This document shows, piece after piece, positions 23,426 to 63,205 of a DNA stretch of 64,000 bases (positions within the stretch are counted from its first letter, which is position 1; the number at the start of each line of letters is the position of its first letter). The notes below the pieces were generated by a model. The model did not search any database, was not told the origin of the DNA, and saw only the letters and a program-made list of their open reading frames with translations. Source of the DNA: a virus; IMG/VR virus record IMGVR_UViG_3300025168_000053, positions 16,262-80,261 of that record, one strand, 5' to 3'. The position numbers were made by a program, and so were the translations under genes.

Positions 23426-23923
23426 ATGGGCGCATTTGAACAAACATGGGCGTTTATCAAGTTTGATGATGAATCACCAACGCCTTATTTGAGCAATTCT
23501 TGTAAGCGTTGCGAAGAACAATACCCGTTAATGCACGACCCCGACATACCCCCTTCAAGTCCCGACTTTCCAATACATGAACATCTCGCAACTTCTATGT
23601 GTAAAAAATGTCGCCACGATAAATTATCGGAATTAAAATGGACTCACGAAAACCACCCCGCACCAGACGTTATTGGCCTTGATGATCGACGAATGCTTAA
23701 TCACCTTGTTGATATTGGGAAATTAAAGGATGGGCAAGAGTCCACACAGAATGAGTTGGACTTTTTGAACACCCCTTGTATGATGAGTCAAACACGGTAT
23801 GAAAATGACAGGGAAGATTCTTCGAGAGCATGGATGAAACCTTTGCCCCCATGCACTTGCGGAGGATGCCCACCTCTAAGGTGGTATGAACGAATGCAGG
23901 GAATACCAGAAGGGATGGAATGA
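23426..23923 (+). CDS. Zinc-binding protein with N-terminal WAFIK tag
   Basis: Encodes 165 residues. Residues 4-12, FEQTWAFIK, form a copy of the shared tag at the extreme N-terminus (W-A instead of W-D). CKRC (about 27) pairs with CKKC (about 59), and further cysteines occur near the C-terminus (CTCGGCP), suggesting two zinc sites. It follows the giant tail gene by 1 nt and is the first of the accessory row 23,426-27,287. The family is not recognised. Tag plus position suggest a virion-associated accessory protein (inference). Confidence 0.6.
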   Translation: MGAFEQTWAFIKFDDESPTPYLSNSCKRCEEQYPLMHDPDIPPSSPDFPIHEHLATSMCKKCRHDKLSELKWTHENHPAPDVIGLDDRRMLNHLVDIGKLKDGQESTQNELDFLNTPCMMSQTRYENDREDSSRAWMKPLPPCTCGGCPPLRWYERMQGIPEGME

Positions 23924-23924
23924 A

Positions 23925-24530
23925 ATGAGCGATGGGAACTGTTATCAATGCGCTTTTCAAGCACTTATGACTGGAAATCCTGATTGGAAAAACCCACGTT
24001 TGATTCATAGCGACATAACGCATTCCAAAACAGGTGAACCATATTCTCATGCCTATGTTGCTTATGATAAGGAACTTGAGTTTCCTGAACCGATGCCCGA
24101 AGAATGGGGTGGGAACATTCCAACAATGCAATTTGTTCACGACCAATCCAATTCATTCAAAGGATCAGGCGATATACCACGTATGTTTTATGAAATGAAT
24201 GCAAAGCCAATACGTGATACAATGCGTGAATACACGCTGGAACAAATGATGGAACAGGCAATGAAGCATTCACATTACGGACCCTGGCCTAATGAAGAAG
24301 CATTTGGAAAATCATGGGATTTGATGAAATCAGGGGTCAAACGCCTCAATACCAATAAGAAAGTTCCTATGCCCTGCCCTGAATGTAGGGGTCCGATGGA
24401 ACATCAAGATGGTTATGTTGGTTCAAGTGGCCGTTATGTTGAACCTGCCTATATGTGCATGGACCCCAAAACAAGTTATTGCGAAGCAAGAAGGCATGAT
24501 GTGAAAAGTTCATTGAAGGAGATGAAATAA
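23925..24530 (+). CDS. Papain-like fold protein with WDLMK tag and zinc ribbon
   Basis: Encodes 201 residues from the ATG at 23925 (1 nt after the previous stop). The first 75 residues carry NCYQCAFQALM, then IHSDITHSKTGEP, SHAYVAYD and later FVHDQSN, which matches the Cys...His...Asp layout of papain-like or transglutaminase-like domains seen in phage and toxin proteins; Cys6 or Cys9 would be the nucleophile. Residues 127-135 read FGKSWDLMK, the shared tag. After it comes a zinc ribbon (CPEC ... MCMDP ... YCEA). The tag thus separates a putative enzyme domain from a zinc domain. Activity is inferred and untested. Confidence 0.55.
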   Translation: MSDGNCYQCAFQALMTGNPDWKNPRLIHSDITHSKTGEPYSHAYVAYDKELEFPEPMPEEWGGNIPTMQFVHDQSNSFKGSGDIPRMFYEMNAKPIRDTMREYTLEQMMEQAMKHSHYGPWPNEEAFGKSWDLMKSGVKRLNTNKKVPMPCPECRGPMEHQDGYVGSSGRYVEPAYMCMDPKTSYCEARRHDVKSSLKEMK

Positions 24531-24871
24531 TGCCAGTCCTCGACCCCCTAAAAGCCGCTTTGACCGACCACCTCCAAACGCTCATCAAGAAGTGTTCACT
24601 TGGTTCTGGGGCTTCCGATGCCTCAAGCCGTGATGGAGGCGCAGGGAATACAAAGATGAGTCAAAATACACTGGTTCAACGCATTGATGATCGAACCATC
24701 TCAGTTAGTGCGTTGTTCGATTCGCAATTGAGCAGCGAACAGGCGATTACCGAAGTTGTTCTTCATGGGGAAAACCCTCTTGACTCACCATCCTTTAGGG
24801 CAACATTCATGCCAATAAACAAGAACGGCACAAATGAAGTCCGAATTGATATTCTAATGGAAGTGAGATAG
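24530..24871 (+). CDS. Hypothetical virion-type protein
   Basis: Encodes 113 residues; its ATG overlaps the previous stop by 1 nt. The N-terminal half is helical and Ser/Gly-rich; the second half is a compact beta unit (AITEVVLHGENPLDSPSFRA, INKNGTNEVRIDILMEV) of a kind often seen in tail-fibre or decoration proteins. It lacks the tag carried by both neighbours. No specific family is assigned. Confidence 0.5.
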   Translation: MPVLDPLKAALTDHLQTLIKKCSLGSGASDASSRDGGAGNTKMSQNTLVQRIDDRTISVSALFDSQLSSEQAITEVVLHGENPLDSPSFRATFMPINKNGTNEVRIDILMEVR

Positions 24872-25224
24872 TGTCCGATAAAAAATCCGAAGAAAAGAAC
24901 GATGAAAAGATAGCCCCAGTGGTTGCAGGTGCGGCGAGAGTCGGAGTTGCAGCAGCAAAGAATCCAGCAGTTCGAGGGGCTGTTGGTGGTGCGGTTCAAG
25001 GAATGATGAAGAAACGGATTGATGAACCATTTGAGATGACATGGGAATTGATGAAAAGCGACGAGAAGGGCGACAACGCCCCAACCAACCCTGGTCTTTG
25101 GTCGCAAGCCAAATCAAAGGCACGTTCTAAGTTCAAGGTTTATCCATCAGCCTACGCTAACGGTTGGGCTTCTAAATGGTATAAATCCAAAGGCGGCGGC
25201 TGGAAGAAAAAGAGCAAGGAGTGA
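24871..25224 (+). CDS. Basic protein with VYPSAYANGWASKWYK motif and WELMK tag
   Basis: Encodes 117 residues from a GTG that overlaps the previous stop by 1 nt. An Ala/Gly/Val-rich segment (about 16-45) precedes the tag FEMTWELMK at 54-62. The C-terminal part has FKVYPSAYANGWASKWYKSK and a Gly/Lys-rich end; this motif is widespread in marine and giant phage proteins, where it accompanies DUF5872-type domains, of unknown function. Strong positive charge would suit DNA or nucleoid contact inside a capsid (inference). Confidence 0.65.
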   Translation: MSDKKSEEKNDEKIAPVVAGAARVGVAAAKNPAVRGAVGGAVQGMMKKRIDEPFEMTWELMKSDEKGDNAPTNPGLWSQAKSKARSKFKVYPSAYANGWASKWYKSKGGGWKKKSKE

Positions 25225-25435: not shown

Positions 25436-25966
25436 TTGATTGACGTTCCTATCGCCGATCTCATCTCAAAGGATTTGAGGCGATGGTTCAAAGAAAAGTG
25501 GGTGGATGTTGGCAGTAAGGACAAAGACGGCAACCACCCTCCCTGTGGCCGTAGTGACGCAAAGACTGATAGCAAAGGCTATCCCAAGTGCCGACCATCA
25601 AAGAAGGTCAGCAGCAAGACCCCTGAAACGACACGTGGCATCAGTTCAAAGGAGAAGAAGGCTATGACTCGAAGAAAGCGTTCAAAGCCACAGGGCGTTG
25701 GTGGAAAGCCAACGGTGGTTAAGAGCGATCCATTTGAAGCCGTATGGGATTCAATCATCAAAGGTCGCTTTCGAGGCTACACGCAATCAAACATCGGTGA
25801 CAGGCCATACCGACAGGCCGAACATAGAATCTGGGATATATCCCGTAAAGTCAAACGTGAGCGAACAAAACGACGATATAAGCGCAATAAAAGCAGGGGA
25901 ACTGTTCGGCCAGCCATGCGCCGTCAATTAGGCGCAGGGGGCAAAAGAGCCTCCACAAAGAGGTGA
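25436..25966 (+). CDS. DUF5872-like basic protein with WDSIIK tag
   Basis: Encodes 176 residues from a TTG preceded by AGGTGAT. Residues about 12-70 (RRWFKEKWVDVGSKDKDG, PCGRSDAKTDSKGYPKCRPS) match the DUF5872 pattern W-V-D-V...PCGRS...YPKCRP found in many phages; function unknown. The tag FEAVWDSIIK is at 100-109, followed by a strongly basic Arg/Lys C-terminus. The next gene's GTG overlaps its stop. Basic nature and tag would fit a DNA-associated internal virion protein (inference). Confidence 0.7.
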   Translation: MIDVPIADLISKDLRRWFKEKWVDVGSKDKDGNHPPCGRSDAKTDSKGYPKCRPSKKVSSKTPETTRGISSKEKKAMTRRKRSKPQGVGGKPTVVKSDPFEAVWDSIIKGRFRGYTQSNIGDRPYRQAEHRIWDISRKVKRERTKRRYKRNKSRGTVRPAMRRQLGAGGKRASTKR

Positions 25967-25974
25967 GGCTTGAT

Positions 25975-27177
25975 ATGATTTTTGATGCTGCATGGGATAT
26001 GATGAAAGCCGACATTTTTCATGAGGGGCGAGCCTATTCCAGCATGGATGATTTGATGCCTAAATTGAATCAGCAAATTGAAGGATGGGGGGGAAGCAAC
26101 AAACAATTGTCGCCATTCCCATTCCCGTATAAAAGCGGAAACTATCGGCATAAATCGTGGAAAGGAATGTCAGATCGAGGGCTTGATGATTTCATAAATA
26201 AAAATCCAGGTTTCAAATCAAGCAGCGAGATGTTGCCAGCAATGATGCCCTGGGTTGGTGGAAAAACACAAATCCAGCCATACATTAGGGGTCTTGCCGA
26301 TTTTTTCCCTAATGCCCGACCTGCTGAACTTTATGGGGGAAGCGGTTCGACAATTCTCGGTATGAACAGGGGAACTGGTTTTTATGCAGACATAAACCCC
26401 GATAATACTAACGCATTTCAACACTTAAAAGATGGTTTAGGGGTCGTTGAAATCCCAAAAACAAGAGAGCGTATGGCTGAGATGGTTTCAAGAATGAATG
26501 ATTTGAGATTTAGGCGTGATGTGAAAGGAGAACAATTGTCAAGCGATGAATTATCGGAACTCGCATCTCATTACATTGGAACAAATCATCAAGCATTTGG
26601 CAATTTGAAATATCCTAATCAAAAACAAAGGAAAAACTATCCTGAATGGTATGGTGGTTCACGATATACCGAAGGACCAATTATGGATAAACAAGGATGG
26701 CGTAAGAGTTCGGTGAGAGTTATGCCGCACAAAGTCGGAGGTCTTGATTTGAGCGCATACCCAGATAGGATGCGTGATGTTGAGATTCATACTGGGGATC
26801 TTCGAGACACACATAAATTGCTACAAGGCGACGAATACCTTTACCTCGACCCTCAATATATTGACCGAATGCACCAATATGGAGGTTCGGATGAACAACT
26901 ATCAGGTGGGGGTTATGACCAACTTCAACGAGACACCATAAGGATTGGTGCTGAACATGACGGGCCAGTTCTTTATTCAAATTATTTGGTTGGTCCAAAA
27001 TCAGGTTTGCCCAACGAAGAGATGATTGCAGATCTGCTGGATAGTGGTTTCGATGCACATACATGGATGAGAAAACCAAAGGGCAACTCAAGACCCGTAG
27101 TTGAAGTTCTTGGATTGAGAAATCATCCTGAACACGTTCAAAGAGGATTGAAAACAAAAAGACTTTTTGATTACTGA
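25975..27177 (+). CDS. Dam-like (D12 class) DNA adenine methyltransferase homologue with N-terminal WDMMK tag and DPQY motif
   Basis: Encodes 400 residues. The ATG at 25975 puts the tag FDAAWDMMK at residues 3-11; a GTG at 25963 is an alternative. From residue 92, PWVGGKTQIQPYI, then ELYGGSGSTIL and GFYADINPDN, match motifs of D12-class adenine methyltransferases that bind AdoMet. The catalytic motif, normally DPPY, is D292-P-Q-Y295 (YLYLDPQYID). A Gln here is very unusual; activity may be lost or changed. A long non-family segment of about 90 residues separates tag and methyltransferase domain. It may modify host or viral DNA if delivered with the virion; that is a hypothesis. Confidence 0.7.
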   Translation: MIFDAAWDMMKADIFHEGRAYSSMDDLMPKLNQQIEGWGGSNKQLSPFPFPYKSGNYRHKSWKGMSDRGLDDFINKNPGFKSSSEMLPAMMPWVGGKTQIQPYIRGLADFFPNARPAELYGGSGSTILGMNRGTGFYADINPDNTNAFQHLKDGLGVVEIPKTRERMAEMVSRMNDLRFRRDVKGEQLSSDELSELASHYIGTNHQAFGNLKYPNQKQRKNYPEWYGGSRYTEGPIMDKQGWRKSSVRVMPHKVGGLDLSAYPDRMRDVEIHTGDLRDTHKLLQGDEYLYLDPQYIDRMHQYGGSDEQLSGGGYDQLQRDTIRIGAEHDGPVLYSNYLVGPKSGLPNEEMIADLLDSGFDAHTWMRKPKGNSRPVVEVLGLRNHPEHVQRGLKTKRLFDY

Positions 27178-28712: not shown

Positions 28713-29093
28713 TCAATCCTCTTCCAATTCCATCAATCTTTTTATCCTTTCACGCATTTCAACGCTCATGATGTCGCCTTTGTCGTGCATTCGATACTCA
28801 GGATTGGGCTTTATGATTTTCCCTGAACCATCTTCCATCAATCTTTTCATCTTTTCACGCATTTCAACGCTCATGATGTCGCCTTTGTCGTGCATTCGAT
28901 ACGGAGGATCAATCATTTGGGTTTTTCCTGAACCAGCCAGTGCAGCAATAAGATGAGGCGGCGCACCACCTTTCCCTGCATAGGCATTCATGACCTTGAG
29001 TTGTTCTTCGCTCATTGGAGGTTTTAATTCTTCATCATTCGTGGTTTCCCACCAATCGGCCTTCATCAAATCCCATGCTCTTTGAAAAACCAT
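28713..29093 (-). CDS. Tagged protein with a 35-residue internal duplication
   Basis: Encodes 126 residues from an ATG that overlaps the upstream stop (ATGA); a GTG 12 nt further upstream is possible. The tag FQRAWDLMK is at residues 3-11. The C-terminal half contains a repeated unit YRMHDKGDIMSVEMRE(K/R) ending in KRLME, two copies 35 residues apart, encoded by near-identical DNA (28731-28797 and 28836-28902). A short Ala/Gly-rich segment (LIAALAGSGKTQM) precedes it; it resembles a P-loop but has no Walker B or other ATPase features, so it is probably not a nucleotide site. Function unknown. Confidence 0.6.
   Translation of the reverse strand: MVFQRAWDLMKADWWETTNDEELKPPMSEEQLKVMNAYAGKGGAPPHLIAALAGSGKTQMIDPPYRMHDKGDIMSVEMREKMKRLMEDGSGKIIKPNPEYRMHDKGDIMSVEMRERIKRLMELEED
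28731..28902. repeat. Two-copy direct repeat inside a coding region
   Basis: Copies at 28731-28797 and 28836-28902 (about 67 nt each, offset 105 nt) are nearly identical; the right-hand 47 nt (28751-28797 versus 28856-28902) are a perfect match. The offset is a multiple of three, so the reading frame is kept. The perfect match at DNA level suggests a recent duplication or ongoing gene conversion. Confidence 0.85.
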
Positions 29094-29620
29094 CAACAAT
29101 TCCACCTTTTCAATGCTGCACCTTTCGGAGTCATTTTGCCACCTTTACTGGTCGGACCTTTGACTCCACCCATTCGAGCGCAAAAAGACTTTCGCCTCTT
29201 GGCCTTCTTCGATCCAGCCTTGAGTTTGCTTGGTTTAGTGGTGACTGGGGGCTTGAGATTTGCACCTTCTTCACGCTTGAACTTGGCTCGACCCTTTGCA
29301 TTTAATCCACCTTTACGGCTATGCTTGTTTGGGTTGTAGCCGTGAAATGGTTTTGACTTCTTTTTACCTTTGAGTAAAGCATCAACCAATAGTTCGTCGG
29401 ACTTTGTAAAAGAACGTTTCCTCCATTGCGAAGGTTTTGTTGCCCTCATCGTTCCGTATGGTGTGCTTTCAAAGCCGCATCCATCGCATTTAGGAGTTGA
29501 GCCTTTTCCATTGCATTGACCGCACACGTGCTTTCCTTTCTTTGCATCGGGGGTTGGCTTTTTCTCACGCCCAATAACGGTTTTGGTTAAGAGGTTGCAG
29601 GTATCGCAATCACACGTCAT
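29093..29620 (-). CDS. Zinc-finger and basic protein of DUF6321-like type
   Basis: Encodes 175 residues. The N-terminus has C-D-C-D-x-C and a CGQC...CDGC zinc finger. The C-terminal part (KGGLNAKGRAKFKREEGANL, KRRKSFCARMGGVKGPTSK, ALKRWNC) matches a pattern common in phage proteins, R-K-G-G-L-N-x-x-G-R ... RRKSFCARM-x-G, that I associate with DUF6321; function unknown. A degenerate version of the tag, FTKSDELLVD, lies at the boundary between the two parts but lacks the tryptophan. Probably DNA-associated and virion-related (inference). Confidence 0.6.
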   Translation of the reverse strand: MTCDCDTCNLLTKTVIGREKKPTPDAKKGKHVCGQCNGKGSTPKCDGCGFESTPYGTMRATKPSQWRKRSFTKSDELLVDALLKGKKKSKPFHGYNPNKHSRKGGLNAKGRAKFKREEGANLKPPVTTKPSKLKAGSKKAKRRKSFCARMGGVKGPTSKGGKMTPKGAALKRWNC

Positions 29621-43816: not shown

Positions 43817-43955
43817 TGAACATCCACCTCCGACATTGTTTGCATTGAACTATTTGTTCGTGCTTTCCTGTAAATGGATTGAACCTCTTATCGGCCAATT
43901 TCATTTCATTCCCGCAATCAGGGCATTTGTGTATTTTGATTGTGTAATCACCCAT
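43809..43955 (-). CDS. Small zinc ribbon (48 aa)
   Basis: Encodes 48 residues: CPDC near residue 11 and CKQC near residue 38 make a textbook zinc ribbon. Its ATG immediately follows the upstream TAA and its end overlaps the next ATG by 8 nt. Too short for most gene finders. Such ribbons are often transcription-related or protein-binding in archaeal viruses (general knowledge); the specific role is unknown. Confidence 0.6.
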   Translation of the reverse strand: MGDYTIKIHKCPDCGNEMKLADKRFNPFTGKHEQIVQCKQCRRWMFND

Positions 43956-44078
43956 TTATTCTTCCTCCGATTCAAACCTGCATTTTTTAGTGGCAATATA
44001 AGTGCGACAAAAACGATAACCAGGGTGAGCATTCTCATTGCATTCTTTACGAATACATGGTCGAGAAGTAAGCCTCAT
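43956..44078 (-). CDS. Small cysteine-rich protein (40 aa)
   Basis: Encodes 40 residues: MRLTSRPCIRKECNENAHPG, then RFCRTYIATKKC and an acidic end. Four cysteines plus a histidine could bind one zinc. It begins in an ATGA overlap and ends directly against the next ATG, consistent with translational coupling. Confidence 0.55.
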   Translation of the reverse strand: MRLTSRPCIRKECNENAHPGYRFCRTYIATKKCRFESEEE

Positions 44079-44329
44079 TCCTCTTCATCCTCCAAAGTGT
44101 TTCTCACGTTGGCAGCAAAGAACCTCATGCCGCTTGAATCAACATGAACACGTTCCCAACGCCATTCTCGTTTGTCGTTGTTTTGACGGAACATCAAATC
44201 CTCCACTAAGTATTTTTCAACATCCTTGAGTATTTGCTTTTTATCTAATGAAGAATGTATTCCGATCAACACCTCTCGCCAACCTGCATTGTTTGTTGGT
44301 GAAATCACAAGGTTTGGTTGATTGTTCAT
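44075..44329 (-). CDS. Hypothetical protein, possibly longer with a rare start codon
   Basis: Encodes 84 residues from the ATG at 44329, with no evident ribosome binding site. The same frame is open upstream to 44416 and reads plausibly as protein (GIEIQTQFEVLENETEDGSL), and a GGAGG sits there about 7 nt before an in-frame ATA. Initiation at ATA or ATT in that stretch, or a frameshift from the overlapping upstream gene, would give about 110 residues. The family is unknown. Confidence 0.45.
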   Translation of the reverse strand: MNNQPNLVISPTNNAGWREVLIGIHSSLDKKQILKDVEKYLVEDLMFRQNNDKREWRWERVHVDSSGMRFFAANVRNTLEDEEE

Positions 44330-44364
44330 CAATACAAACAGGCTTCCATCTTCGGTTTCATTCT

Positions 44365-44622
44365 CTAAGACTTCAAATTGCGTTTGTATCTCAATCCCTC
44401 CTGTTGTTTCAAATCTTTAATTTTGATTATTCGAGTATCAATCTCATTCAAAGCATCGAACTGTTCAACGCCCGACAAATCTTTGAATCGTGCGCTGCCA
44501 AGAAGCATTCCACGATCCGCAAACAATTCAACAAGCAATTCATCGTATGCTGAAATAAAGTTCTGGTGATCACTGAGAATCCTTGCGGCTTTTTCGATGT
44601 CACGCTTTACAAAAGGCCACAT
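44365..44622 (-). CDS. Hypothetical helical protein
   Basis: Encodes 85 residues, predicted as a helical bundle (IEKAARILSDHQNFISAYDE, EIDTRIIKIKDLKQQEG). The ATG at 44622 lies about 27 nt downstream of the TGAGGCTTTAAT element. It may overlap the extended form of the next gene. No family recognised. Confidence 0.5.
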   Translation of the reverse strand: MWPFVKRDIEKAARILSDHQNFISAYDELLVELFADRGMLLGSARFKDLSGVEQFDALNEIDTRIIKIKDLKQQEGLRYKRNLKS

Positions 44623-44648
44623 TATCTTAACCCAAAGCGGTTCGGCAA

Positions 44649-44659
44649 TTAAAGCCTCA
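44649..44659 (-). promoter_or_regulatory. Candidate promoter TGAGGCTTTAA that includes a stop codon
   Basis: The minus-strand TGAGGCTTTAAT begins with the TGA stop of the preceding gene (44657). It lies about 27 nt before the next ATG in a 34 nt gap. It matches 11 of 12 bases of the copies at 4775 and 40676. Confidence 0.35.
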
Positions 44660-53632: not shown

Positions 53633-53642
53633 AGGGTATATC
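53633..53642 (-). promoter_or_regulatory. Candidate promoter GATATACCCT
   Basis: Minus-strand GATATACCCT overlaps the end of the helicase gene and lies 58 nt before the ATG at 53575. A second weaker match, GATATACTGAAT, follows at about 20 nt downstream. It is the third copy of the motif seen at 31933 and 47964. Confidence 0.45.
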
Positions 53643-56600
53643 AATAATCCTCTCCCGTAAGACCATCAATGGCCTTTGTTTCCACAAAGTTGCCCAGGGC
53701 AACATCATAGGCATATTTGGAATAGAGTTCGCCAATGTAATTGACAACCGCATCAGGGGATTGGGAATCGCCAGCATTGATGCCACCCAATTCCTTTGGG
53801 ATCGGGACATTTATTTTTGATTGTCTAACACCATTCGCCACTGAAATGCCATCCTGTTGCATGGCTGAGATGTGCCAGTATTGCGTAGCACCTCTCGGCA
53901 AAGAGAGAACGTATTTTTGGGCTGATGATGGCGACGAATCGTAGGTGTCGTTGCGATATTTCAGCACCCGTTGTTCTGTTTCATTGTGAATCAAAGCGTA
54001 TTGATACCCTCTTGAAACCTTACGGAGTAATTGGCTTGAGAACAAATTGTGATATTGAATTGGATTGGCTTCAACACGCTCAAAATAGAATCCTTGAACC
54101 TCGCCCTCGCTCATGTGCCGAGCCTGTTGAATGTCCTCATATTGAGGGTTCTGGGCTTCCCAGGCATCGAAGTCATCCATGCTCATTGCGACCACTTTAC
54201 CCTCAACGGTTTCGAGTTCAACGTATTCTGTTTCAGTAGTCCAGTCATGGCCGTCATCATCGTTGCCATCATCGCCACGATCCTCATCGCCGCCTTCACA
54301 GGATGAACAAACACGCTTGGATTCAAGTTCCTCAGTGGTGCTGTCAATCATCTCATCAAGGCTGATGTTCACAAGGACTGAGCCGCATGAATCAGGGGCG
54401 ATTTCACCGCCCATGTGCTTCTCGAACTTGCCAGATTTAGAATGGGTGTCATATCGAATACGGCAAAGGTGGCCGTCGCACTTGCAGCAAGTTCCGTGTT
54501 CCTCTCCCTCAGCGATGATGGTTTCACATTCAACGCACCGATCATCATTAGGGGTGTCGCATACGCAAAGTTCCAATCCACAGTCTTGACAGTCATCGCT
54601 CTCAGGGGTGTCCTGTGGCGACTCTTTGACCTCGTTTGGTATGTCGTTGCACATCAAGTCCATGTCGAGGTCATAAGCACCCTGTAATCGCTGTTCAACG
54701 TCTTGAGCGATTTGACCCTCAAGTTCACCATTGACAATGATGTTTTGCTTTTGCGCCCTGCTGTATGCAACGTAGCCCATTGACACTTCATTGACGGCTG
54801 ATTCTGGCGAGGCTTCACAGGCTCGCTTATTCATGAAACAGGATTGAACAGTTGGGTTGCCGTCTTCATCGTCTTCAACAATCGAATTGACAATGAACAT
54901 GACCTCGGCCTCATCGCCTTTGTAGCGATGGATTGTAGCGATGTGAACAGCATTGCCGCCACGCTCACTGAACAACGTATCATTGACCCAGTTCTTGAGA
55001 GCATCAGCGAGGTTCTTTCCTTTGACTTCACCATCGCTGCGAGATCGGTGAAGAGATACAAACGCCTCAAGGAGTTCGATGTTGCCCATGAACTCTTGAA
55101 ATGCGGTGGATTGAGCCATGCTCTTTGTATCACCTTTGAACAGGTCGGAGTATTTGGCGAGAGCAACCTTTCTAATGCTCTCAATGTCCCTCAAGAGCAA
55201 GGAATGTTGCTTGACCTTAGAAGCATCCATCTTGTGCCATCCAAGCCCAAGCATGGTCTTTCCATTCACATTCTTGTATGACTCATCCAAAGCCCCAGAA
55301 CGCATCATGTTGGCGGCTGAGAATGCTTGAGTGACAAGACCATCCTTGCCGCTTGGAGTTGATACTGGAATGCCGTTCATGAGGAACGTCTTGATGAAGC
55401 CAGCGAGAGGCTTCTTGAGGCGACAAAGGAGGCCAAACGTGGTGTCCTCACCATGAAGTTCTCTTGACTTGTGATATGCCTTGACAATCTCATCACCTTC
55501 GATTTGAATAGGCGCAGCACCGACAGGCCAGAAGTCATATCCAGCCTCAAGCGGAGATCGGTGTGCTTGATAATCTGGGAGGTCAATGTTGGCGTGATAA
55601 CGACGTGCAATATCAGCGAACTGAGCAGTAGCATACTTGACAGATTGAGCAACCATATCAGTGCCTCTCCAACAGATAGTCTGTGGATAGAATGTAGCAT
55701 CAATGGCCTTTGCATTGTCCGAAAATGCCTGACTTGAAGCCCCCGCAAATAAATAGATCGCCTGGCGCAAATCGCCCACCATGACCTTGTGTGCATCCTC
55801 TTTCACCAATCGCCAAACCAATTGAGCCTTGAGAACTGAGAGGTCTTGAACCTCGTCAATGAACATGACATCAGCCTTCTCATGCTGAGGGATTTGAAGA
55901 TCGAGAGCGTGTGGAAGGTAAATCTGGTCGGCCATGCTGAGAACCAACACACCCTTGCCACCACTGGTGGATGAGGATTCAACAACCTCTAACGACTCAT
56001 CATCAAGCATATTGTGGAACTCATCACCGAACTTCTCAGCGAGCAATGCAACGACCTTCTCAACACAATTGGGCTTGACAATGCCGAGTCCTAAAGAAGT
56101 GTCATAACGCCGCCATGTTTTGATGTTTTCACCATTGACAATAGCATTGCCGTTCTTTCCGAACTGAGTTCCGAATCCTTTTCCACCGATCTTCTTCAAG
56201 TGGCCTCCATTCTCAAAGGAATAGATGATGTGGCCTTTGTGCTTCTTGACAATGACCTTCGCCTCAGTATCAAATGACACCGACTTGACACCGCTTTTCT
56301 TCTGGGTATCAGCAGGTGGGAATCGGCAACCGCCTGTCTCAAGGATGGCGAACTCAGCCTTCTTGACCATGTTTGGGTCGGTGGTGCGAATCTGTTTTGA
56401 CATAGGCACAGCATCCTCCCACCATCCACGTTGATTCTTGTTTGGAACAACAGCATCCATGACGGACTTTCCATCGCCACAGAATGGCTTCAATTGAACA
56501 TTCAAGAATGCTGTTTCGATAGCAACGGCAAGGATCTCAACAACCAATTGGAACACCGATTGGTCGCCCAGATTGCGAGCAGGGTTCTCATCCCATGACT

Positions 56601-57411
56601 GATTGACACCGACTCGCTGAACAACCTCAGCAATGGCCTTCACGTCATCCTCATGGACTGTTGGAGGAATGTATGGGGTCGGAACTTCACGGTCAATGGT
56701 GGATTCTGGAACAAAGCCCTCATCCATCACCATGTTGGCAACCTTGACCAATCCTTCACCGATCATGTTGTTGAAGGCATGAGATGTGGTCTTGACCTGC
56801 ATGGCCTTTCGAGCGTTCTCAAGCAATGCTGAACGGTCTTCACGGCCCAACCAACCTGCAAGGGTCAAACGGGCGATTCTAATGTATCTGTCATCACCGT
56901 ATTTCAGCATTGAAATATGAGAGAATCCATCAGCATGAGCCTTGTTCAACAACAATTGGTTGCCACCTGCATTGACGGTGTTATTGTTGCCGAATATCTT
57001 GACATTCAATCCATCAGTGGATTGGAACTGGATGAGGATGTCTTTACTGGACTTAGCAATGTGGGTATTGAAGGCGGTCATGGCCGTCAAGAGTTCAGGG
57101 GCAAGCCTGGAAACAATGTGGGTCATGCCCTGCAATAGAGAGGTCTTACCTGAACCTGCTACGGCTGATACTGCGATTGAGATCGGCTTGCCACCATTGC
57201 GAGATTCATAGAGAGCCTTAGCGAATGCTCTCAGCACCCTCAGTTGTTCCCAAGACCATTTGTTGCCGTTCCTATCCACTTCTGGAATACCTGCCTCAGC
57301 ATCCCTATGCAGGGTGATGGCAAGGGCAAGGTTCTCAGCCGAACTGAGGAACGTGTTGAGGCTGATGAAGACAGCCATGAAGAGGGAGAGAGCGATGACT
57401 GAGAATATCAT
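53641..57411 (-). CDS. UvrD/Rep-like superfamily 1 helicase, very long, with zinc-rich C-terminal region
   Basis: Encodes 1,256 residues. Motif I: VSAVAGSGKTSLL; motif II: MFIDEVQDLS; motif III: GDLRQAIYLFAG; later HIATIHRYKGDEAEVMFIV (motif V) and YVAYSRAQKQNIIV (motif VI). A large insert lies between motifs I and II. After the helicase core, about 350 further residues include CQDCGLELCVCD, CVECET and CCKCDGHLC, a cysteine-rich zinc region, and acidic stretches. The first 40 residues (IFSVIALSLFMAVFISLNTF) are hydrophobic, odd for a helicase. The start is fixed by an ATGA overlap. It probably unwinds DNA in replication or repair. Confidence 0.85.
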   Translation of the reverse strand: MIFSVIALSLFMAVFISLNTFLSSAENLALAITLHRDAEAGIPEVDRNGNKWSWEQLRVLRAFAKALYESRNGGKPISIAVSAVAGSGKTSLLQGMTHIVSRLAPELLTAMTAFNTHIAKSSKDILIQFQSTDGLNVKIFGNNNTVNAGGNQLLLNKAHADGFSHISMLKYGDDRYIRIARLTLAGWLGREDRSALLENARKAMQVKTTSHAFNNMIGEGLVKVANMVMDEGFVPESTIDREVPTPYIPPTVHEDDVKAIAEVVQRVGVNQSWDENPARNLGDQSVFQLVVEILAVAIETAFLNVQLKPFCGDGKSVMDAVVPNKNQRGWWEDAVPMSKQIRTTDPNMVKKAEFAILETGGCRFPPADTQKKSGVKSVSFDTEAKVIVKKHKGHIIYSFENGGHLKKIGGKGFGTQFGKNGNAIVNGENIKTWRRYDTSLGLGIVKPNCVEKVVALLAEKFGDEFHNMLDDESLEVVESSSTSGGKGVLVLSMADQIYLPHALDLQIPQHEKADVMFIDEVQDLSVLKAQLVWRLVKEDAHKVMVGDLRQAIYLFAGASSQAFSDNAKAIDATFYPQTICWRGTDMVAQSVKYATAQFADIARRYHANIDLPDYQAHRSPLEAGYDFWPVGAAPIQIEGDEIVKAYHKSRELHGEDTTFGLLCRLKKPLAGFIKTFLMNGIPVSTPSGKDGLVTQAFSAANMMRSGALDESYKNVNGKTMLGLGWHKMDASKVKQHSLLLRDIESIRKVALAKYSDLFKGDTKSMAQSTAFQEFMGNIELLEAFVSLHRSRSDGEVKGKNLADALKNWVNDTLFSERGGNAVHIATIHRYKGDEAEVMFIVNSIVEDDEDGNPTVQSCFMNKRACEASPESAVNEVSMGYVAYSRAQKQNIIVNGELEGQIAQDVEQRLQGAYDLDMDLMCNDIPNEVKESPQDTPESDDCQDCGLELCVCDTPNDDRCVECETIIAEGEEHGTCCKCDGHLCRIRYDTHSKSGKFEKHMGGEIAPDSCGSVLVNISLDEMIDSTTEELESKRVCSSCEGGDEDRGDDGNDDDGHDWTTETEYVELETVEGKVVAMSMDDFDAWEAQNPQYEDIQQARHMSEGEVQGFYFERVEANPIQYHNLFSSQLLRKVSRGYQYALIHNETEQRVLKYRNDTYDSSPSSAQKYVLSLPRGATQYWHISAMQQDGISVANGVRQSKINVPIPKELGGINAGDSQSPDAVVNYIGELYSKYAYDVALGNFVETKAIDGLTGEDY

Positions 57412-57818
57412 TCAGCCACCTCCTTCACAGAATCAAGGTGTTCGCATATCTTCTTGACACAGAACTTGAATGCCTGTTTGATGCTGTGGAAGCGGTCTGG
57501 AAGGAACTCAGCCGTCACAGCGAAGGATGGGTGAACCCTGTTGAGAGCCATACCCTTTGCATCTCTCACCGTTCTCATTTGAGGGAATATCTCAGCATCG
57601 AATTGGCCGAAAGTCCAGCCCGATCTGCAATCTCGAACATCAACCCAACCATAGCGATTAGAGCATCCCTTTGAGGTGTGATAATTCAAGTCAATGAGGC
57701 CAATGACTTCATCCTTGAAAACGACTTCATAGGACTTCAAATCAGGGCTTTCCGATACTGTGTAATCATCAGCCGCTTCATAACTGAAAACGCCATGAGG
57801 TGTGGTTATGGAACTCAT
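57408..57818 (-). CDS. Hypothetical protein
   Basis: Encodes 136 residues with alternating strands (SYEVVFKDEVIGLIDLNYHT, RSGWTFGQFDAEIF) and a helical end (FHSIKQAFKFCVKKICEHLD). It starts and ends in ATGA overlaps, between a zinc-ribbon protein and the helicase. Unknown family. Confidence 0.55.
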   Translation of the reverse strand: MSSITTPHGVFSYEAADDYTVSESPDLKSYEVVFKDEVIGLIDLNYHTSKGCSNRYGWVDVRDCRSGWTFGQFDAEIFPQMRTVRDAKGMALNRVHPSFAVTAEFLPDRFHSIKQAFKFCVKKICEHLDSVKEVAE

Positions 57819-58342
57819 TCAACCACCCCGCCAGCAAGCAGATCGATGGAATCAACCGTTGGGAGGTCATCAACACAGGATGGAGAGCCAGAAACGGTTT
57901 CGCACCAATCATACATCTCTCCATTCCATCCACCATTGCCACAGACAACGCAGTAGTCATGGTAATCCCAGTGGAAAGAGCCACAGGAGGTGCAACGGAC
58001 ATTCCGAAGGCGAGAACCCTCTTTGGTGACAGTAGCAGCCCAACAGGACAAGGACTTGTTGTTGAGGTATTCATTGAGCGATTGACGGGTGAATCCGTAT
58101 TCTGGGTATCGTTGTTCACTGTGAGCATCGAAGGGAGTATCAGCCAGCATCATTGCATGGCGAGGTGTAAAGAATTGAACGTCGTTGAGGATGATTTGAG
58201 GCATCCCTCTCATCGAAGGGTCGGTGGTGTATTCACTGTGAAGGGAGATCGGCAAGTTCGGCCTCATCCATCGCAGTTGTTCATACACTTGGCTGCTGGT
58301 CAATCGGTCTTTAGGCATCATTTGGGTTGCTTCGTTTTCCAT
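57815..58342 (-). CDS. Zinc-ribbon protein, first gene of the minus-strand block
   Basis: Encodes 175 residues from the ATG at 58342, preceded by GGAAGTGA; the open frame further upstream reaches 58456 but has weaker starts. RCTSCGSFHWDYHDYCVVCG (about 115-134) is a zinc ribbon. Being the first gene of a 31 kb operon-like block next to the putative origin/control region, it is a candidate early regulator (inference). Confidence 0.55.
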   Translation of the reverse strand: MENEATQMMPKDRLTSSQVYEQLRWMRPNLPISLHSEYTTDPSMRGMPQIILNDVQFFTPRHAMMLADTPFDAHSEQRYPEYGFTRQSLNEYLNNKSLSCWAATVTKEGSRLRNVRCTSCGSFHWDYHDYCVVCGNGGWNGEMYDWCETVSGSPSCVDDLPTVDSIDLLAGGVVE

Positions 58343-58514
58343 TGTTTTCACTTCCGTTTTTGGGGTTAGGGCATTCATAGTGTTCGCCCCCTTATCCCCC
58401 ACCACACCATGCAGGGTTGATAAAGAGTTCCGACAGGATAGACAGGAGGGACACATTAGAGGACAAGCATGACCTCAGCATCAAACGATGCAGGGAGAGC
58501 GATGAGAGCCACCT

Positions 58515-58542
58515 CAAAGGACACAAAGGACACAAAGGACAG
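58515..58542 (+). repeat. Tandem AAAGGACAC repeats
   Basis: Three consecutive 9-nt units, AAAGGACAC, AAAGGACAC, AAAGGACAG, preceded by C. They lie in the control region about 180 nt upstream of the minus-strand block and could be protein-binding sites. Confidence 0.7.
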
Positions 58543-58847
58543 TTCGACAAAGAGAGAGGACAAAAGACAGGGTGTGAATAGGGGAAAAGAGAGAGAGGTT
58601 GAGAGAAAATATGTTGTTGTTTGTCATGTATTATTTGTCCTTTCATTTAGCCCCATGTCTTTGTTGTCTATCGTGTCTAATGTGGGCTTCCAATCGGCCA
58701 TCAAAACCAGGTGTCAAACCATGCGTAAATGACCCCCTGCTCACCACCTGCCGTGAGGGTCGGTGTGTTGATGTGATCGGTGGAAAATAAGACAAATGTT
58801 GCGATATATTGTCCGAACAGGCTCGCAGGGGGCTGAAATTGGGTGTC

Positions 58848-59178
58848 GAACTGGGTGTTTAACGTGGTATTGGACTGGGTGTGCCGCCAGCACGTGCCGA
58901 TAACGCCACAGATTGAGCCTAAATGAGCGTTGAACTGGGTGTTTGACTGAGTATCGGACTGAGTGTGCTGATAACGCCACAGAACACGCCCAGAACGCCG
59001 CCTATCGCCACAGAATGAGCCGTGTGGAGATGGACTGGGTGCATGACTGAGTGCATCGCCACAGAACCACCCTCGAACCCACCGATCTCTCGCAACAGAC
59101 TGAGCCGAGCGAGGGGGCGAGTCTTCGACTCGCCCGTATCACCACAGAACGCATCACTGAGAGCCTATGGACTGGGTG
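58848..59178 (+). repeat. Interspersed iteron-like repeats ACTGGGTG and CGCCACAGA
   Basis: ACTG[GA]GT[GA] starts at 58850, 58874, 58934, 58946, 58958, 59034, 59046 and 59171. The first five are spaced by 24, 60, 12 and 12 nt, all multiples of 12; the sixth and seventh are again 12 apart. CGCCACAGA occurs at 58904, 58975, 59006 and 59057 with a variant near 59140. Regular phasing of two interleaved motifs suggests binding sites on one face of the helix, as in origin iterons. Confidence 0.7.
59115..59135. other. Perfect inverted repeat (hairpin) in the control region
   Basis: GGGCGAGTC, TTC, GACTCGCCC: a perfect 9-bp stem with a 3-nt loop, GC-rich. It lies inside the repeat field. It could be a cruciform at an origin or a transcription stem-loop; there is no T-run directly after it, so a simple terminator is less likely. 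Confidence 0.65.
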
Positions 59179-59329
59179 TGGCGACCCAGTGCGGCCACGC
59201 AGCCCCCCGTTTTTTGCCAGTGCGGGGTAAGTCTGGAGATGTTTTTTTTTTTTTGCTGAGGCCGCCATAAGCCCCAGATGCTACACGGAAAAAAATTGGG
59301 AAAAAAGTTGTTAGGAATGTTAAGTAGTT

Positions 59330-59343
59330 GGGATGGCTTTATT
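59330..59343 (+). promoter_or_regulatory. Candidate promoter for the right-hand operon
   Basis: GATGGCTTTATTTC lies about 25 nt before the ATG at 59368, preceded by A-rich stretches (59285-59306). It resembles the TGAGGCTTTAAG motif (GGCTTTA core) and has a spacing typical for an archaeal TATA box with a short leader. Inferred. Confidence 0.35.
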
Positions 59344-59367
59344 TCAACCTGCCGTATGCGGTAAGAT

Positions 59368-60423
59368 ATGGTGAATGCTTTCAAGACGAGTTGGGATGCT
59401 CTAATTAAGAATCGCCCACAACGTCCAGATTATTTTATTGATGCTCAACCTGCTGATTCAAATGTTGATCTTGGCGAGATGATGCAAGACTTTTCGATGC
59501 CAGAAGTTGATATTAAAGACATAGGCGGAGATGGAGATACTTGCTGTGCCGATCTCCGAACAGGTATGGCAAATCTAATCACACATTCCGACAATCATTA
59601 CGGTGGTTTATCAGGGCAAATGGCTGAGGCTTTGCATGGGTCTATTGATTTTGATGAAGGCATTGAAGGGGCATCATGTGAAACATTGGTTGATGCTTTG
59701 AAAAGTGCAATAAGTTATGGTGAATATGCCTTTGAGCAAGGAGGGAACACCGTTGCATATTGGAAAGATTACGGGTTTGACAGCGAGCATCACGCAATGT
59801 CCGAGCATCGAGAACTTCATGATGATGAGGATGGCAAGCATGAGATGGATTTATTGAATCGTATGCGTCAATTAAAATTAGAATATGAGGCTTGTAAAAT
59901 GGGTGGATTTGATGATGCAAAAGAAAGTGAATCCACAGGGTTCTATGCAAGTGCCGAACCATTTGAATTGGCTTGGGATTCCATTCGTAAAGAAGAAGAA
60001 TACGTTGAAATCGAATATGAAAGTGGTGAAACAATTCAGTTAAGTTTCAAAGAGTTTGATAAAATCAAATTGGATTGGGAAAACGATGATGATATTGTAG
60101 CGGTTAGAACTTATCGAGGCGACGAAGTATCTCAAATCCTAAAATCGGATGAATCAGCCATTGAAGTTCGAGATCGTTCCCTCGCCATTCTCGCCAGTAT
60201 GGGTTTGAAGTGGGATGAGAACCCGCTAAGGCCGCAACATGAAATGCCCGTTCACGCTGATGGAAGAGATTTGTCGGATGATGAATACGAACAGTTGATG
60301 AAAGTTCCAGCGTTCAATAAAGCAGTTTGGGATTTGACTAATGTTTGGGCATTGAGCAATGAGCGAAGAGAACAAATAATGCAGTATGCAAGGGAAAACC
60401 GCATAGGTGGTTTTGATGTTTAA
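59368..60423 (+). CDS. Protein with two WD-type tags, family unknown
   Basis: Encodes 351 residues. The tag occurs twice: FKTSWDALIK at residues 5-14 and FELAWDSIRK at 199-208; a weak third likeness, FNKAVWDLTN, lies near residue 312. The region between the tags is helical with a cysteine pair (GDTCCADLRT) and histidines (SEHHAMSEHRELHDD). After the second tag a small beta unit (VEIEYESGETIQLS) and a helical part follow. The two tags suggest two fused tagged modules. No enzyme motif is visible. Confidence 0.6.
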   Translation: MVNAFKTSWDALIKNRPQRPDYFIDAQPADSNVDLGEMMQDFSMPEVDIKDIGGDGDTCCADLRTGMANLITHSDNHYGGLSGQMAEALHGSIDFDEGIEGASCETLVDALKSAISYGEYAFEQGGNTVAYWKDYGFDSEHHAMSEHRELHDDEDGKHEMDLLNRMRQLKLEYEACKMGGFDDAKESESTGFYASAEPFELAWDSIRKEEEYVEIEYESGETIQLSFKEFDKIKLDWENDDDIVAVRTYRGDEVSQILKSDESAIEVRDRSLAILASMGLKWDENPLRPQHEMPVHADGRDLSDDEYEQLMKVPAFNKAVWDLTNVWALSNERREQIMQYARENRIGGFDV

Positions 60424-60574: not shown

Positions 60575-62079
60575 TTAAGAAGTCCGACTTCAAGGTTGGT
60601 GGTCGCTTCTTAGGAGATAGGAGAAGGAATGATCCTTACGGCATTCATTTTAACGATGGACCGCAAACTTACCGTTATCGAGTTCCGATTGGAAAAGACG
60701 AGGATGGCAATTTGATTTATTCCGATTATGATCGTGAAGTGAGTAGTCGTGATTGGACTTACCCTGGTGAGATTTACAGACGGGCAAACGAAAGAGATAT
60801 TGTTTCACGTGAAGAATACAATGATATGTATTTAGATCCCGATATAAGCGGAGATCAGATGGGGCGAATCTTGCGAGATGCAAAGGAACAGGTAGCGATT
60901 CGCCAAATTGGTGATACGGCATCCCATGAGTCAGGGCATACCGCCCACGACATGACCGACCCTGAGCGACAAAATCACTATTGGGGGGAAAAACAAGCAA
61001 ACAGGCAGCGTGGAGGATATGGTTTGTTCGATACTAATTCGGACTCGGATGAAAAAAGTGTGGGTGAGTTCGTTGCCTATATGTCGGAATATCCGCATGA
61101 TAGCATCAAGTTTCGTCGAGGAATGAAGAATCATCCTGATGTTGGAGAACGTTATGTCAAAAGGATTAGAAATGCAAACATTGACGCAAATGAGAGTAGC
61201 CGAGCAAAAAGGAATGTTGTCAATGCAATTCTTGACCAAACGGCAACAACAGGAAAAAGAACTGGTGCTGGCAACTTCCAATTTGGCGACATTGATGAAG
61301 CAAGGAACAGGAAGAAGCAAGCCGAGCGCACTTCAAGAGCCTTGATTCGCCAAATCCAACAATTGCCAGATGAAGGAATTGAAGGCTTTGGTGATTTGCC
61401 GCAAGACATTCAAGAAGGGATTGGGCGTTTGCAGTTGCGAGATCAATTATCTCAATTCATGGATAACAATTTTGAAACGGCAAGGCAAGCAGAACTTAAC
61501 ACCTTGATGCACGATCCCAACTCGATTGATTTTGCTATTGCCAATCCTAAAATGTTCTTTGAGAACTATGACTCCGTTCCTGTTGATTGGGTGGAAGGAA
61601 AGGGTCGTTGGGATGATTATGTGTTGGGGAATGATGCGCTTTCAACCATTGCACACTATGACCATCATGGGCGTTATGACGAAAACCCAGAACTCCTTGA
61701 AGCATTGAAAGAAAGGTTTGGTGAGCCGACCAGCGATCAGGGTTGGGGATTGAAGCCGAAGGTCAAGTCAAATCCTTACATGAGAACGCCCTGGCAATAC
61801 TATGACCCTCGATTTGGAAGCGAGCCATTGCTTGACGACATAATTCATCAATACGGTTTAGCGGAAGATCGTGGAGTTGATTTTGATTCTTCAAGAGCCT
61901 TTATGAAATCTTGGGGCTTGATAAAGGCTGAACCTTTTTCGGGCAAGTTCCCTGCTAAATATCCAGGCAACTGCAAAGTCTGTGGAACTTATTTGAAACC
62001 AGGTCAAGAAGTGATGTATAATCGAATGCTCGGCGGAGTCACCTGTCCTTTTGATTGCGGGAGGGCTTACGTTGTCTGA
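60571..62079 (+). CDS. Zincin-like (HExxH) protein with WGLIK tag and zinc ribbon
   Basis: Encodes 502 residues from the ATG at 60571. TASHESGHTAHD (residues 117-128) contains HExxH of zinc metalloproteases; a following VGEFVAYMSE about 50 residues later could give the third ligand. The middle is helical and charged. The tag FMKSWGLIK (W-G instead of W-D) is at 444-452, and after it a zinc ribbon (NCKVCGTYLKPG, CPFDCGRAY) ends the chain. As with the papain-like protein, a putative enzyme is joined to a zinc ribbon through the tag. Proteolytic activity is inferred. Confidence 0.6.
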   Translation: MIKKSDFKVGGRFLGDRRRNDPYGIHFNDGPQTYRYRVPIGKDEDGNLIYSDYDREVSSRDWTYPGEIYRRANERDIVSREEYNDMYLDPDISGDQMGRILRDAKEQVAIRQIGDTASHESGHTAHDMTDPERQNHYWGEKQANRQRGGYGLFDTNSDSDEKSVGEFVAYMSEYPHDSIKFRRGMKNHPDVGERYVKRIRNANIDANESSRAKRNVVNAILDQTATTGKRTGAGNFQFGDIDEARNRKKQAERTSRALIRQIQQLPDEGIEGFGDLPQDIQEGIGRLQLRDQLSQFMDNNFETARQAELNTLMHDPNSIDFAIANPKMFFENYDSVPVDWVEGKGRWDDYVLGNDALSTIAHYDHHGRYDENPELLEALKERFGEPTSDQGWGLKPKVKSNPYMRTPWQYYDPRFGSEPLLDDIIHQYGLAEDRGVDFDSSRAFMKSWGLIKAEPFSGKFPAKYPGNCKVCGTYLKPGQEVMYNRMLGGVTCPFDCGRAYVV

Positions 62080-63205
62080 GTTTAACAAAAAGTGCAAAGA
62101 ATGTGGCGATTTAGTCAAGGACACCCATGAAGGCGTTCCATTTGTTGATGGAACGGCAATGTGCATGGATTGTTTTCTTGAAGATTACAAGCACTATGGG
62201 AAAAAGGTATTAGAAGCCTTAGAAGATGGTGGCGTGTTTGATGAAGAAATTGAAACCAGCGATGAGCAATGGTTTGACGACCCCGAATGGATCGAGATGA
62301 ATAGAGGCAAGCCTTTCGCTGTCGCTTGGGATTCCATCGCAAAAGAATGGAGTCCAAATTGGAGGGATGAGGCATCGAAGTTGCCTTTACATCAATTAGA
62401 TGAATACCTTGATTTGGATATGGGAGAAGGAACTGAATTGAGAACCTATGAACACCCGTCAAATCCTAATTTTGTTATCAAGAGGCCAATATCACTTGAC
62501 CCTACATTCCGTCGTCATTATGGAAAAAGCAAAGACCCTGAATTGGATCGGTTGAAGGAATTGGTTGAGTTGGGTTCAATTGAGATGAACTCAATAGAGC
62601 GTTTGCCTTACTGGGATGCTTTAGAAAGTCTTGGTTATCCTGTTGTTTCCTCCAAGTATTTTGGAACGGACCAAAGAGAATTAGGGAATTACTTTGTTCA
62701 ACCTCGAATGAGTTTGGATGAAAAAATGATTCCGCATAAAGTTGCAGATTGGAGAGTGAACCAAGATTTTCTTGAAGGAATAATGGAGAGCAATGGCAAG
62801 GGTGGCAAAATAGCCAACCCAATGAAAGACCCTGCGTTTGCAGCAGCAAATAGGGAATCACAAATCATAGATGAGATTTTGACGAATGCAGTTGGAGATC
62901 GGCATGGAGGCAATTTTGGTTTAGACCAAAAAGGCAATGAAAGAATGTTTGATCTTCAAATGCACTTTGGAGATGGAATCGGAGAATGGGATTCCGAAGA
63001 AATGCAACAAAGACAACAAACCTTGAACCAATATGGAATCCAAATCCCTGCCTCACGTATGTTGAACGCAATAACCGATGAGATGGTTGAAATTGACCCG
63101 TATGTTAGCAATTACAGGGCTTACCTTGAACGCCTTGAGCCATACTCGGATAACCCCAAGTATGTTGAAGTGGATGGTAAAGCAAAGTGGATGGAGGGAT
63201 ATTGA
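62072..63205 (+). CDS. Kinase-like protein with WDSIAK tag
   Basis: Encodes 377 residues from a TTG at 62072, chosen for GGGAGGG 7 nt upstream, overlapping the previous gene by 8 nt. CKEC and CMDC near the start form a zinc site. The tag FAVAWDSIAK is at 82-91. The rest resembles a protein-kinase-like fold: FVIKRP (Lys of the ATP site, about 135), NYFVQPRM (hinge), and VGDRHGGNFGL (about 274-284; D-R-H-x-x-N catalytic loop) followed by MFDLQM (Asp for metal, about 292). Distant relatives are HipA and PI3K-like kinases. Phosphorylation of host proteins is a hypothesis. Confidence 0.6.
   Translation: MSEFNKKCKECGDLVKDTHEGVPFVDGTAMCMDCFLEDYKHYGKKVLEALEDGGVFDEEIETSDEQWFDDPEWIEMNRGKPFAVAWDSIAKEWSPNWRDEASKLPLHQLDEYLDLDMGEGTELRTYEHPSNPNFVIKRPISLDPTFRRHYGKSKDPELDRLKELVELGSIEMNSIERLPYWDALESLGYPVVSSKYFGTDQRELGNYFVQPRMSLDEKMIPHKVADWRVNQDFLEGIMESNGKGGKIANPMKDPAFAAANRESQIIDEILTNAVGDRHGGNFGLDQKGNERMFDLQMHFGDGIGEWDSEEMQQRQQTLNQYGIQIPASRMLNAITDEMVEIDPYVSNYRAYLERLEPYSDNPKYVEVDGKAKWMEGY

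What the first reader, a model, noticed from the sequence alone, without database searches (positions are those of the whole stretch)
58343..59367. Phased iteron-like repeats and hairpin between divergent gene blocks
Eight ACTG[GA]GT[GA] elements, five of them phased by multiples of 12 nt, interleaved with four CGCCACAGA copies, three tandem AAAGGACAC units and a perfect 9-bp hairpin lie in the only long gap, exactly where transcription diverges. This fits an origin plus early promoter region.
Basis: partly seen in the sequence, partly recalled or inferred. Interest (0 to 1): 0.6.

Follow-up and report, generated by a model that had tools for sequence, protein, structure and literature searches.

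The report
Archaeal virus origin-and-terminus control region
The one long non-coding gap in this marine archaeal virus is a conserved control region that probably combines the replication start, the two outward promoters and the place where the packaged genome is cut; it is a useful map for a virus group that nobody has cultured.

Summary
The repeats are real, far above chance, and conserved in relatives. The gap was recovered whole in eight other viral contigs and truncated in four more (three lineages).

Left half (58431-58712): GACA boxes converge on TGTC boxes across an AT-rich centre. In the closest lineages the spacing repeats to within 1-2 nt.

Right half (58750-59254): the ACTG[GA]GT[GA] and CGCCACAGA repeats plus a hairpin. 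The repeat word differs between lineages, and the hairpin keeps a perfect 8-9 bp stem through fully compensated changes (22 two-sided, 0 one-sided).

The four truncated contigs (three lineages) all begin at the homologous base (window 58750), 76-78 nt from the last TGTC box. This suggests a physical genome end (terminase cut), so the 'iterons' more likely belong to a packaging or terminal-repeat element. The nearest cultured relatives by capsid protein, Druskaviridae, have 585- and 739-bp terminal repeats.

Promoter-like motifs sit at both edges. Origin, cut type and binding proteins are inferred, not shown. Skew agrees but is confounded with gene direction.

The parts
57815..58378 (-). First gene of the - strand (replication) block, with a CxxC...CxxC zinc-ribbon-like stretch; start taken as ATG at 58378
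   Evidence: ORF; no Pfam or PHROG match
58417..58424 (-). TATA-like element (TTTATCAA on the - strand) of the leftward promoter; conserved context CCCTGCATGGTG
   Evidence: Sequence and alignment (G004, L147, L182, L226 have TTGATATACCCTGCA or similar); function inferred
58432..58465 (+). Box group A: GACA at 58432, 58441, 58450, 58462 (spacing 9, 9, 12)
   Evidence: same 9-9-12 spacing in G004, L147, L228
58520..58541 (+).
58559..58569 (+). Box group C: GACA at 58559, 58566
58570..58650 (.). Centre and right flank: purine-rich then AT-rich DNA, candidate unwinding element; least stable 60 bp of the gap is 58591-58650
   Evidence: least stable 60 bp overlaps the centre or inner boxes in 8 of 9 lineages
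58622..58677 (-). Mirror boxes: TGTC at 58622, 58636 (C') and 58656, 58665, 58674 (B'); includes TGTCTATCGTGTCTAATG, among the most conserved blocks of the gap
58749..58750 (.). Putative genome terminus / cut site: motif CNCYT|GCSG; contigs G002, G009 and G011 (= G012) begin at the homologous base
   Evidence: third B' box to terminus is 76 nt in six lineages and 78 in G010
58793..58816 (.). Inverted pair GACAAA-N13/14-TGTC just right of the terminus, conserved in the closer lineages
   Evidence: Alignment
58850..59178 (+). ACTG[GA]GT[GA] array (8 exact; 11 copies of GACTGAGTG with up to 2 mismatches in the right half)
   Evidence: lineage-specific versions in relatives
58904..59065 (+). CGCCACAGA repeats interleaved with the array
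   Evidence: also in L147, L182, L228, G002, G009 and (fewer) G004
59115..59135 (.). Perfect 9-bp hairpin / inverted repeat, 3-nt loop; stem kept with compensated sequence changes in relatives
59242..59254 (+). Run of 13 T, preceded by TGGAGATG; a run of 10 or more T is present in every relative recovered
   Evidence: archaeal-terminator-like (inferred)
59274..59311 (+). Conserved block GATGCTACACGGAAAAAAATTGGGAAAAAAGTTGTTAG
59328..59347 (+). Late-promoter candidate GGATGGCTTTATTTCAA, about 20-30 nt before the ATG
   Evidence: second copy before another structural gene in L182
59368..60423 (+). First gene of the structural block (351 aa)
   Evidence: distant homologues in G002, G004, G007, G009, G023

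Best explanation
The gap is a composite control region. SHOWN: it is conserved across at least nine divergent viruses and has two halves divided at 58749|58750, where several relatives' contigs end. INFERRED: (1) the left half is the replication origin. An initiator binds the GACA boxes and their inverted TGTC partners, and the AT-rich centre between them unwinds. (2) The outer edges carry the leftward early promoter and the rightward late promoter. (3) 58749|58750 is the terminase cut that makes a fixed genome end. The ~505-bp right half, with its lineage-specific 9-mer repeats, hairpin and T-run, is the packaging-recognition or terminal-repeat segment at that end, comparable in size and character to the non-coding 585-bp terminal repeat of HVTV-1. 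The T-run would also stop transcription crossing the gap before the late promoter.
For: Array: 10 GACA and 6 TGTC in a fixed order with no misoriented box in the window; 0/500 shuffles reach the score in eight lineages and 1/500 in the ninth; it is the densest 300 bp for these words in 64 kb (16 against mean 2.0). Least stable 60 bp lies at the centre in 8 of 9 lineages. Terminus: G002, G009, G011 and G012 begin at one alignment column, and no contig held ends elsewhere in the gap. The distance from the third B' box is 76 nt in six lineages and 78 in G010, to which G011's end maps. Right half: hairpin stem paired in 98.8% of cells with 22 double-sided changes; repeat words in excess in nearly every lineage. 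Precedent: MCP is 31-32% identical to Druskaviridae; HVTV-1 and HCTV-1 terminal repeats of 585 and 739 bp verified; the HVTV-1 repeat is largely non-coding and repeat-rich. Two oppositely transcribed blocks match the published magrovirus layout.
Against: No read data, so the terminus rests on contig ends. G011 and G012 may be re-assemblies of one sample: L240/L241 show that two assemblies can share an arbitrary end. No contig ending from the left side was found, and no contig shows the segment at both ends. Window, G004, L147, L182, L226, L228, G010, G015 and L243 all read through the site. G015 and L243 have the array and repeats but no recognisable CT|GC motif. No initiator gene (Orc1/Cdc6, Rep) was identified among the proteins scanned. 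Skew is confounded with gene direction. An operator function for the GACA boxes would give the same conservation.
Confidence: 0.5

Rival explanations
1. The whole gap is a regulatory region: GACA/TGTC boxes are operator sites of a viral transcription regulator controlling divergent early and late promoters, with no origin function. The T-run and hairpin form an attenuator.
For: Group A directly abuts the leftward TATA-like element; promoter-like motifs at both edges; T-runs terminate archaeal transcription (general knowledge). Spacing-conserved arrays also occur in operators.
Against: The symmetric layout around the least stable DNA 150-200 bp from the promoter is more origin-like. The reproducible contig end and the ~500-bp repeat half are not needed for an operator.
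Confidence: 0.25
2. One reading: the ACTG[GA]GT[GA] and CGCCACAGA repeats are the initiator-binding iterons and the hairpin is part of the origin.
For: Strong excess and 12-nt phasing; the triplet at 12-nt spacing is kept in G002, G004, L147, L182; position at the divergence point.
Against: The word changes between lineages (GACTGGGTG, GACTCGGTG, GAATGGG/CAATG types) while the GACA boxes beside it do not; this half is not AT-rich; it lies on the far side of the contig-end site.
Confidence: 0.12
3. The right half is transcribed as a structured non-coding RNA starting near the conserved AAAATAT element (~58610) and ending at the T-run (59254).
For: Covarying hairpin; conserved T-run; folding z-scores mostly -1 to -5 on the + strand.
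Against: z-scores are similar on the - strand; 0 one-sided (G-U type) changes in 81 cells; no Rfam match. The symmetry points to DNA inverted repeats.
Confidence: 0.1
4. Assembly artefact for the terminus: contigs break at this point because related strains share one side and differ on the other, not because DNA ends there.
For: Metagenome contigs commonly break at strain forks; G011 and G012 may not be independent.
Against: Three divergent lineages break at the same base of a conserved motif, and none elsewhere in the gap.
Confidence: 0.25

Closest known systems
Direct terminal repeats of Druskaviridae (HVTV-1 585 bp, HCTV-1 739 bp)
   Same: Nearest isolates by capsid protein (31-32% MCP identity); fixed genome ends; HVTV-1's repeat is largely non-coding, similar in length (585 against about 505 bp) and holds many short direct repeats
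   Different: No duplicated copy seen here; no sequence similarity noted; HVTV-1 and HCTV-1 repeats have no perfect hairpin of 7 bp or more; the HCTV-1 repeat holds an annotated gene; no GACA array was looked for there
Archaeal chromosomal origins with inverted origin-recognition boxes around an unwinding element (general knowledge)
   Same: Oppositely oriented boxes on both sides of unstable DNA, in a gap where transcription diverges
   Different: Box word is GACA(C) at 9-nt spacing, not an ORB; no Orc1/Cdc6 gene found next to it
Iteron origins of plasmids and phages (general knowledge)
   Same: Short phased direct repeats in a control region
   Different: Repeat word differs between relatives; no adjacent Rep gene found; repeats not beside the AT-rich element
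Phage pac/cos sites with terminase-binding repeats, and the hairpin intermediate of T7 concatemer processing (general knowledge)
   Same: Repeats and a structure-conserved hairpin on one side of a defined genome end
   Different: Cut chemistry and TerS binding untested; site is more than 20 kb upstream of TerL in relatives where both are held
Magrovirus genomes (Aoguangviridae, Apasviridae)
   Same: 90-110 kb, replication and structural blocks transcribed in opposite directions, chaperonin, ERCC4-type nuclease (PMC10768690, PMC12999244, PMC10160649)
   Different: Those profiles describe circular assembly with suspected terminal redundancy or permutation and mention no origin or defined termini; family membership of this virus not established

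Membership tests
Archaeal ORB-type replication origin | Inverted arrays of one box flanking an AT-rich unwinding element | tested here: met
   GACA versus TGTC groups, least stable 60 bp between or over the inner boxes in 8 of 9 lineages
Archaeal ORB-type replication origin | Adjacent or viral orc1/cdc6 initiator gene | tested here: inconclusive
   No such Pfam match among the proteins scanned; not every ORF was scanned and the record is incomplete
Archaeal ORB-type replication origin | Replication starts there in vivo | not testable with these tools
   No read-depth data
Iteron-type origin | Several copies of a short phased direct repeat | tested here: met
   8 copies against 0.07 expected, five on a 12-nt phase
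Iteron-type origin | Repeat bound by a Rep initiator encoded alongside | tested here: inconclusive
   Flanking proteins have no family match
Direct terminal repeat genome (Druskaviridae type) | Same segment at both ends of the linear genome | tested here: inconclusive
   Four contigs begin at the site but none held reaches the other genome end
Direct terminal repeat genome (Druskaviridae type) | Fixed genome end | tested here: inconclusive
   Coinciding contig ends in three lineages support it; needs raw reads
cos/pac packaging site | Terminase cut at a conserved sequence | tested here: inconclusive
   Conserved CNCYT|GCSG at the contig ends; cleavage not testable here
Structured non-coding RNA | Strand-specific structure with G-U tolerant covariation | tested here: not met
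   Similar z on both strands; 0 one-sided changes in 81 cells
Magrovirales | Gene set (PolB, ERCC4 nuclease, chaperonin, HK97 MCP, divergent blocks) | tested here: inconclusive
   Chaperonin and ERCC4 nuclease, HK97 MCP, divergent blocks; PolB not found among the proteins scanned; ICTV exemplars not in the collection

The most novel reading that the evidence does not exclude
A previously undescribed viral chromosome-end module: a conserved inverted-box origin lies less than 100 bp from the packaging cut, and the adjacent terminal segment carries a fast-changing 9-mer repeat family and a hairpin whose arm often matches the lineage's own repeat word. That would point to a recognition protein co-evolving with its sites, and to origin and genome end working as one unit.
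Probability: 0.3. Interest if true: 0.7.

Novelty: new variant of a known kind. Interest (0 to 1): 0.52.

Why it matters
These viruses of marine archaea are abundant, uncultured and known only from metagenomes. The published profiles say only that the genomes assemble as circles and may be terminally redundant or permuted. A named base for the genome end, a named box array for the origin and named promoter sites turn that into direct tests on existing read data, and give anchor motifs for orienting and completing such genomes. The lineage-specific repeat words beside an unchanging box array would also allow study of how a DNA-binding protein and its sites change together.

Tried and rejected
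Rfam: no match. tRNA scan: none. Single-protein scans with the helicase and the first right-hand gene found no relatives, so TerL and then a helicase alignment were used. ICTV magrovirus exemplars (PP497040, OR863078, ON649702) are not in the collection. Genome-contig scans for the promoter block and for the thermosome found nothing, so the host's own origins could not be compared and the host is not tested. PDB search for possible replication proteins gave nothing useful. GC and purine skew: the switch lies at the gap but coincides with the gene-direction switch, so it is not independent evidence. The G011/G012 agreement was first read as independent support and then discounted after L240/L241. 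A further search of TerL-relative records for the right half added only contigs already known. Structured RNA considered and downgraded.

Full report
What the window is. The window is bases 16262-80261 of an 80,261-bp IMG/VR virus record. The structural block runs on the + strand from 59368 to the record's end and continues at the record's start through terminase, portal and HK97 capsid protein. The replication block runs on the - strand from 58456 down to 27288. It holds a chaperonin of the thermosome/cpn60 family, an ERCC4-type nuclease and a UvrD-like helicase. The capsid protein is 31-32% identical to Druskaviridae. The two-block layout matches the published magrovirus profiles. This is a magrovirus-like tailed virus; family and host were not established here.

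The observation. All the repeats described are present and far above chance. Small corrections: two exact AAAGGACAC plus one AAAGGACAG, and a fifth CCACAGA.

Relatives. TerL found 80 related loci. From these, from the helicase and from DNA patterns, the gap was recovered complete in eight other viral contigs: G004, L147, L182, L226, L228, G015, G010, L243. It was recovered truncated in G002, G009, G011 and G012. The gap differs in length and has many insertions and deletions, yet keeps one order of elements. G002's right half is 87% identical to the window's; G010, G015 and L243 are very distant.

Left half. GACA occurs at 58432, 58441, 58450, 58462, 58520, 58529, 58538, 58546, 58559, 58566, and TGTC at 58622, 58636, 58656, 58665, 58674, 58712. 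Every GACA precedes every TGTC. G004 and L228 repeat the spacing to within 1-2 nt: 9-9-12, then 88 nt from group A to group B, then 9-9, then two boxes 7 apart, then a centre of 52-53 nt, then 14, then 20, then 9-9. L147, L182 and L226 keep most of it; G015, G010 and L243 keep a reduced version. Shuffles reach the observed orientation score 0/500 times in eight lineages and 1/500 in L226. The least stable 60 bp of the gap (up to the T-run) falls at the centre in eight of nine lineages. The most conserved stretches of this half are 58610-58640 and around 58670. This is the layout of an origin with inverted recognition boxes around an unwinding element. An operator array for the neighbouring leftward promoter is the main rival.

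The terminus. G002, G009, G011 and G012 begin at one column of the alignment, right after CT in a conserved CNCYT|GCSG, window 58749|58750. The distance from the third B' box to this point is 76 nt in the window, G004, L147, L182, L226 and L228, and 78 nt in G010, to which the G011 end maps. No contig held ends elsewhere in the gap. G011 and G012 may be two assemblies of one sample, so the evidence is three lineages. All four contigs hold the right side; no left-side end was found. Raw reads were not available, so this remains an inference, though a coincidence to the base in three lineages is unlikely by chance.

Right half. The repeats of the finding lie here. Best 9-mers (up to two mismatches) occur 8-14 times per lineage against 4.0-5.8 in shuffles (L228 and G009 weaker: 10 against 7.2 and 9 against 5.8), and the word differs: GACTGGGTG-like in window, G002 and L147; GACTCGGTG in L182; GACTGAGTG in L226; GGCTGGGC/CAATG types in G010; GAATGGG in G015. 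A perfect 9-bp hairpin (8 bp in G010 and G011) with a 3-4 nt loop occurs in ten lineages; G015 and L243 show only other, shorter stems. On the alignment of its variants 98.8% of cells pair, with 22 double-sided and no one-sided changes. Elsewhere such hairpins occur about once per 128 kb (8 in 1,027 kb). Where the repeat word changed, one hairpin arm often resembles the new word (L182: repeat GACTCGGTG, arm GGCTCGGTG; L226: GACTGAGTG and GGCTGAGTG). Folding z-scores are similar on both strands, so constraint on DNA, or a mutational process that perfects palindromes, fits better than an RNA. On the - strand most loops read GNA or GNNA, which form unusually stable DNA hairpins (general knowledge; not tested).

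Precedent. HVTV-1 and HCTV-1 records carry direct terminal repeats of 585 and 739 bp, verified here (PMC3950731). The HVTV-1 repeat is almost entirely non-coding and rich in short repeats. A right half of about 505 bp starting at the contig end would be the counterpart, but no duplicated copy was seen.

Edges. Leftward TATA-like TTTATCAA at 58417-58424; rightward GGATGGCTTTATTTCAA at 59331-59347, about 20 nt before the ATG at 59368 and found again before another structural gene in L182. The T-run and the block GATGCTACACGGAAAAA...AAAAAGTTGT precede it.

Verdict. A real, conserved control region. Confidence: conserved control region about 0.95, terminus about 0.65, origin core about 0.55, all of it together about 0.5. 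New variant of known kinds (origin, terminal/packaging site), described here for an uncultured archaeal virus group.

Noticed in passing
window ORFs 30-260, 23886-24530, 24871-25224, 25436-25966, 25963-27177, 28713-29105(-), 59368-60423, 62051-63205: A short motif F..[AS]WD.[MI][MI]K recurs in at least eight otherwise different proteins, often near the N-terminus (9 matches against 0.2 in shuffled proteins). It is also seen in first genes of relatives (G002, L182, G010). It looks like a shared tag, perhaps for virion incorporation or protease processing.
   Followed up: partly
window 53641-57411 (-): UvrD-like helicase of 1256 aa with a large insertion (roughly residues 100-490) between the Walker A region and the recognised UvrD domain; the insertion is shared by relatives.
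   Followed up: no
window 43817-44656: A stretch of about 840 bp in the replication block with only small ORFs on either strand; possibly a second non-coding region.
   Followed up: no
L240 and L241: Two IMG/VR contigs with different sample numbers differ at 2 of 14,475 positions and share the same end inside a coding region; re-assemblies of one sample can mimic independent agreement.
   Followed up: yes
window 58793-58816: Conserved inverted pair GACAAA-N13/14-TGTC just right of the putative terminus, in seven or more lineages; might be a further copy of the box system on the packaged side.
   Followed up: partly
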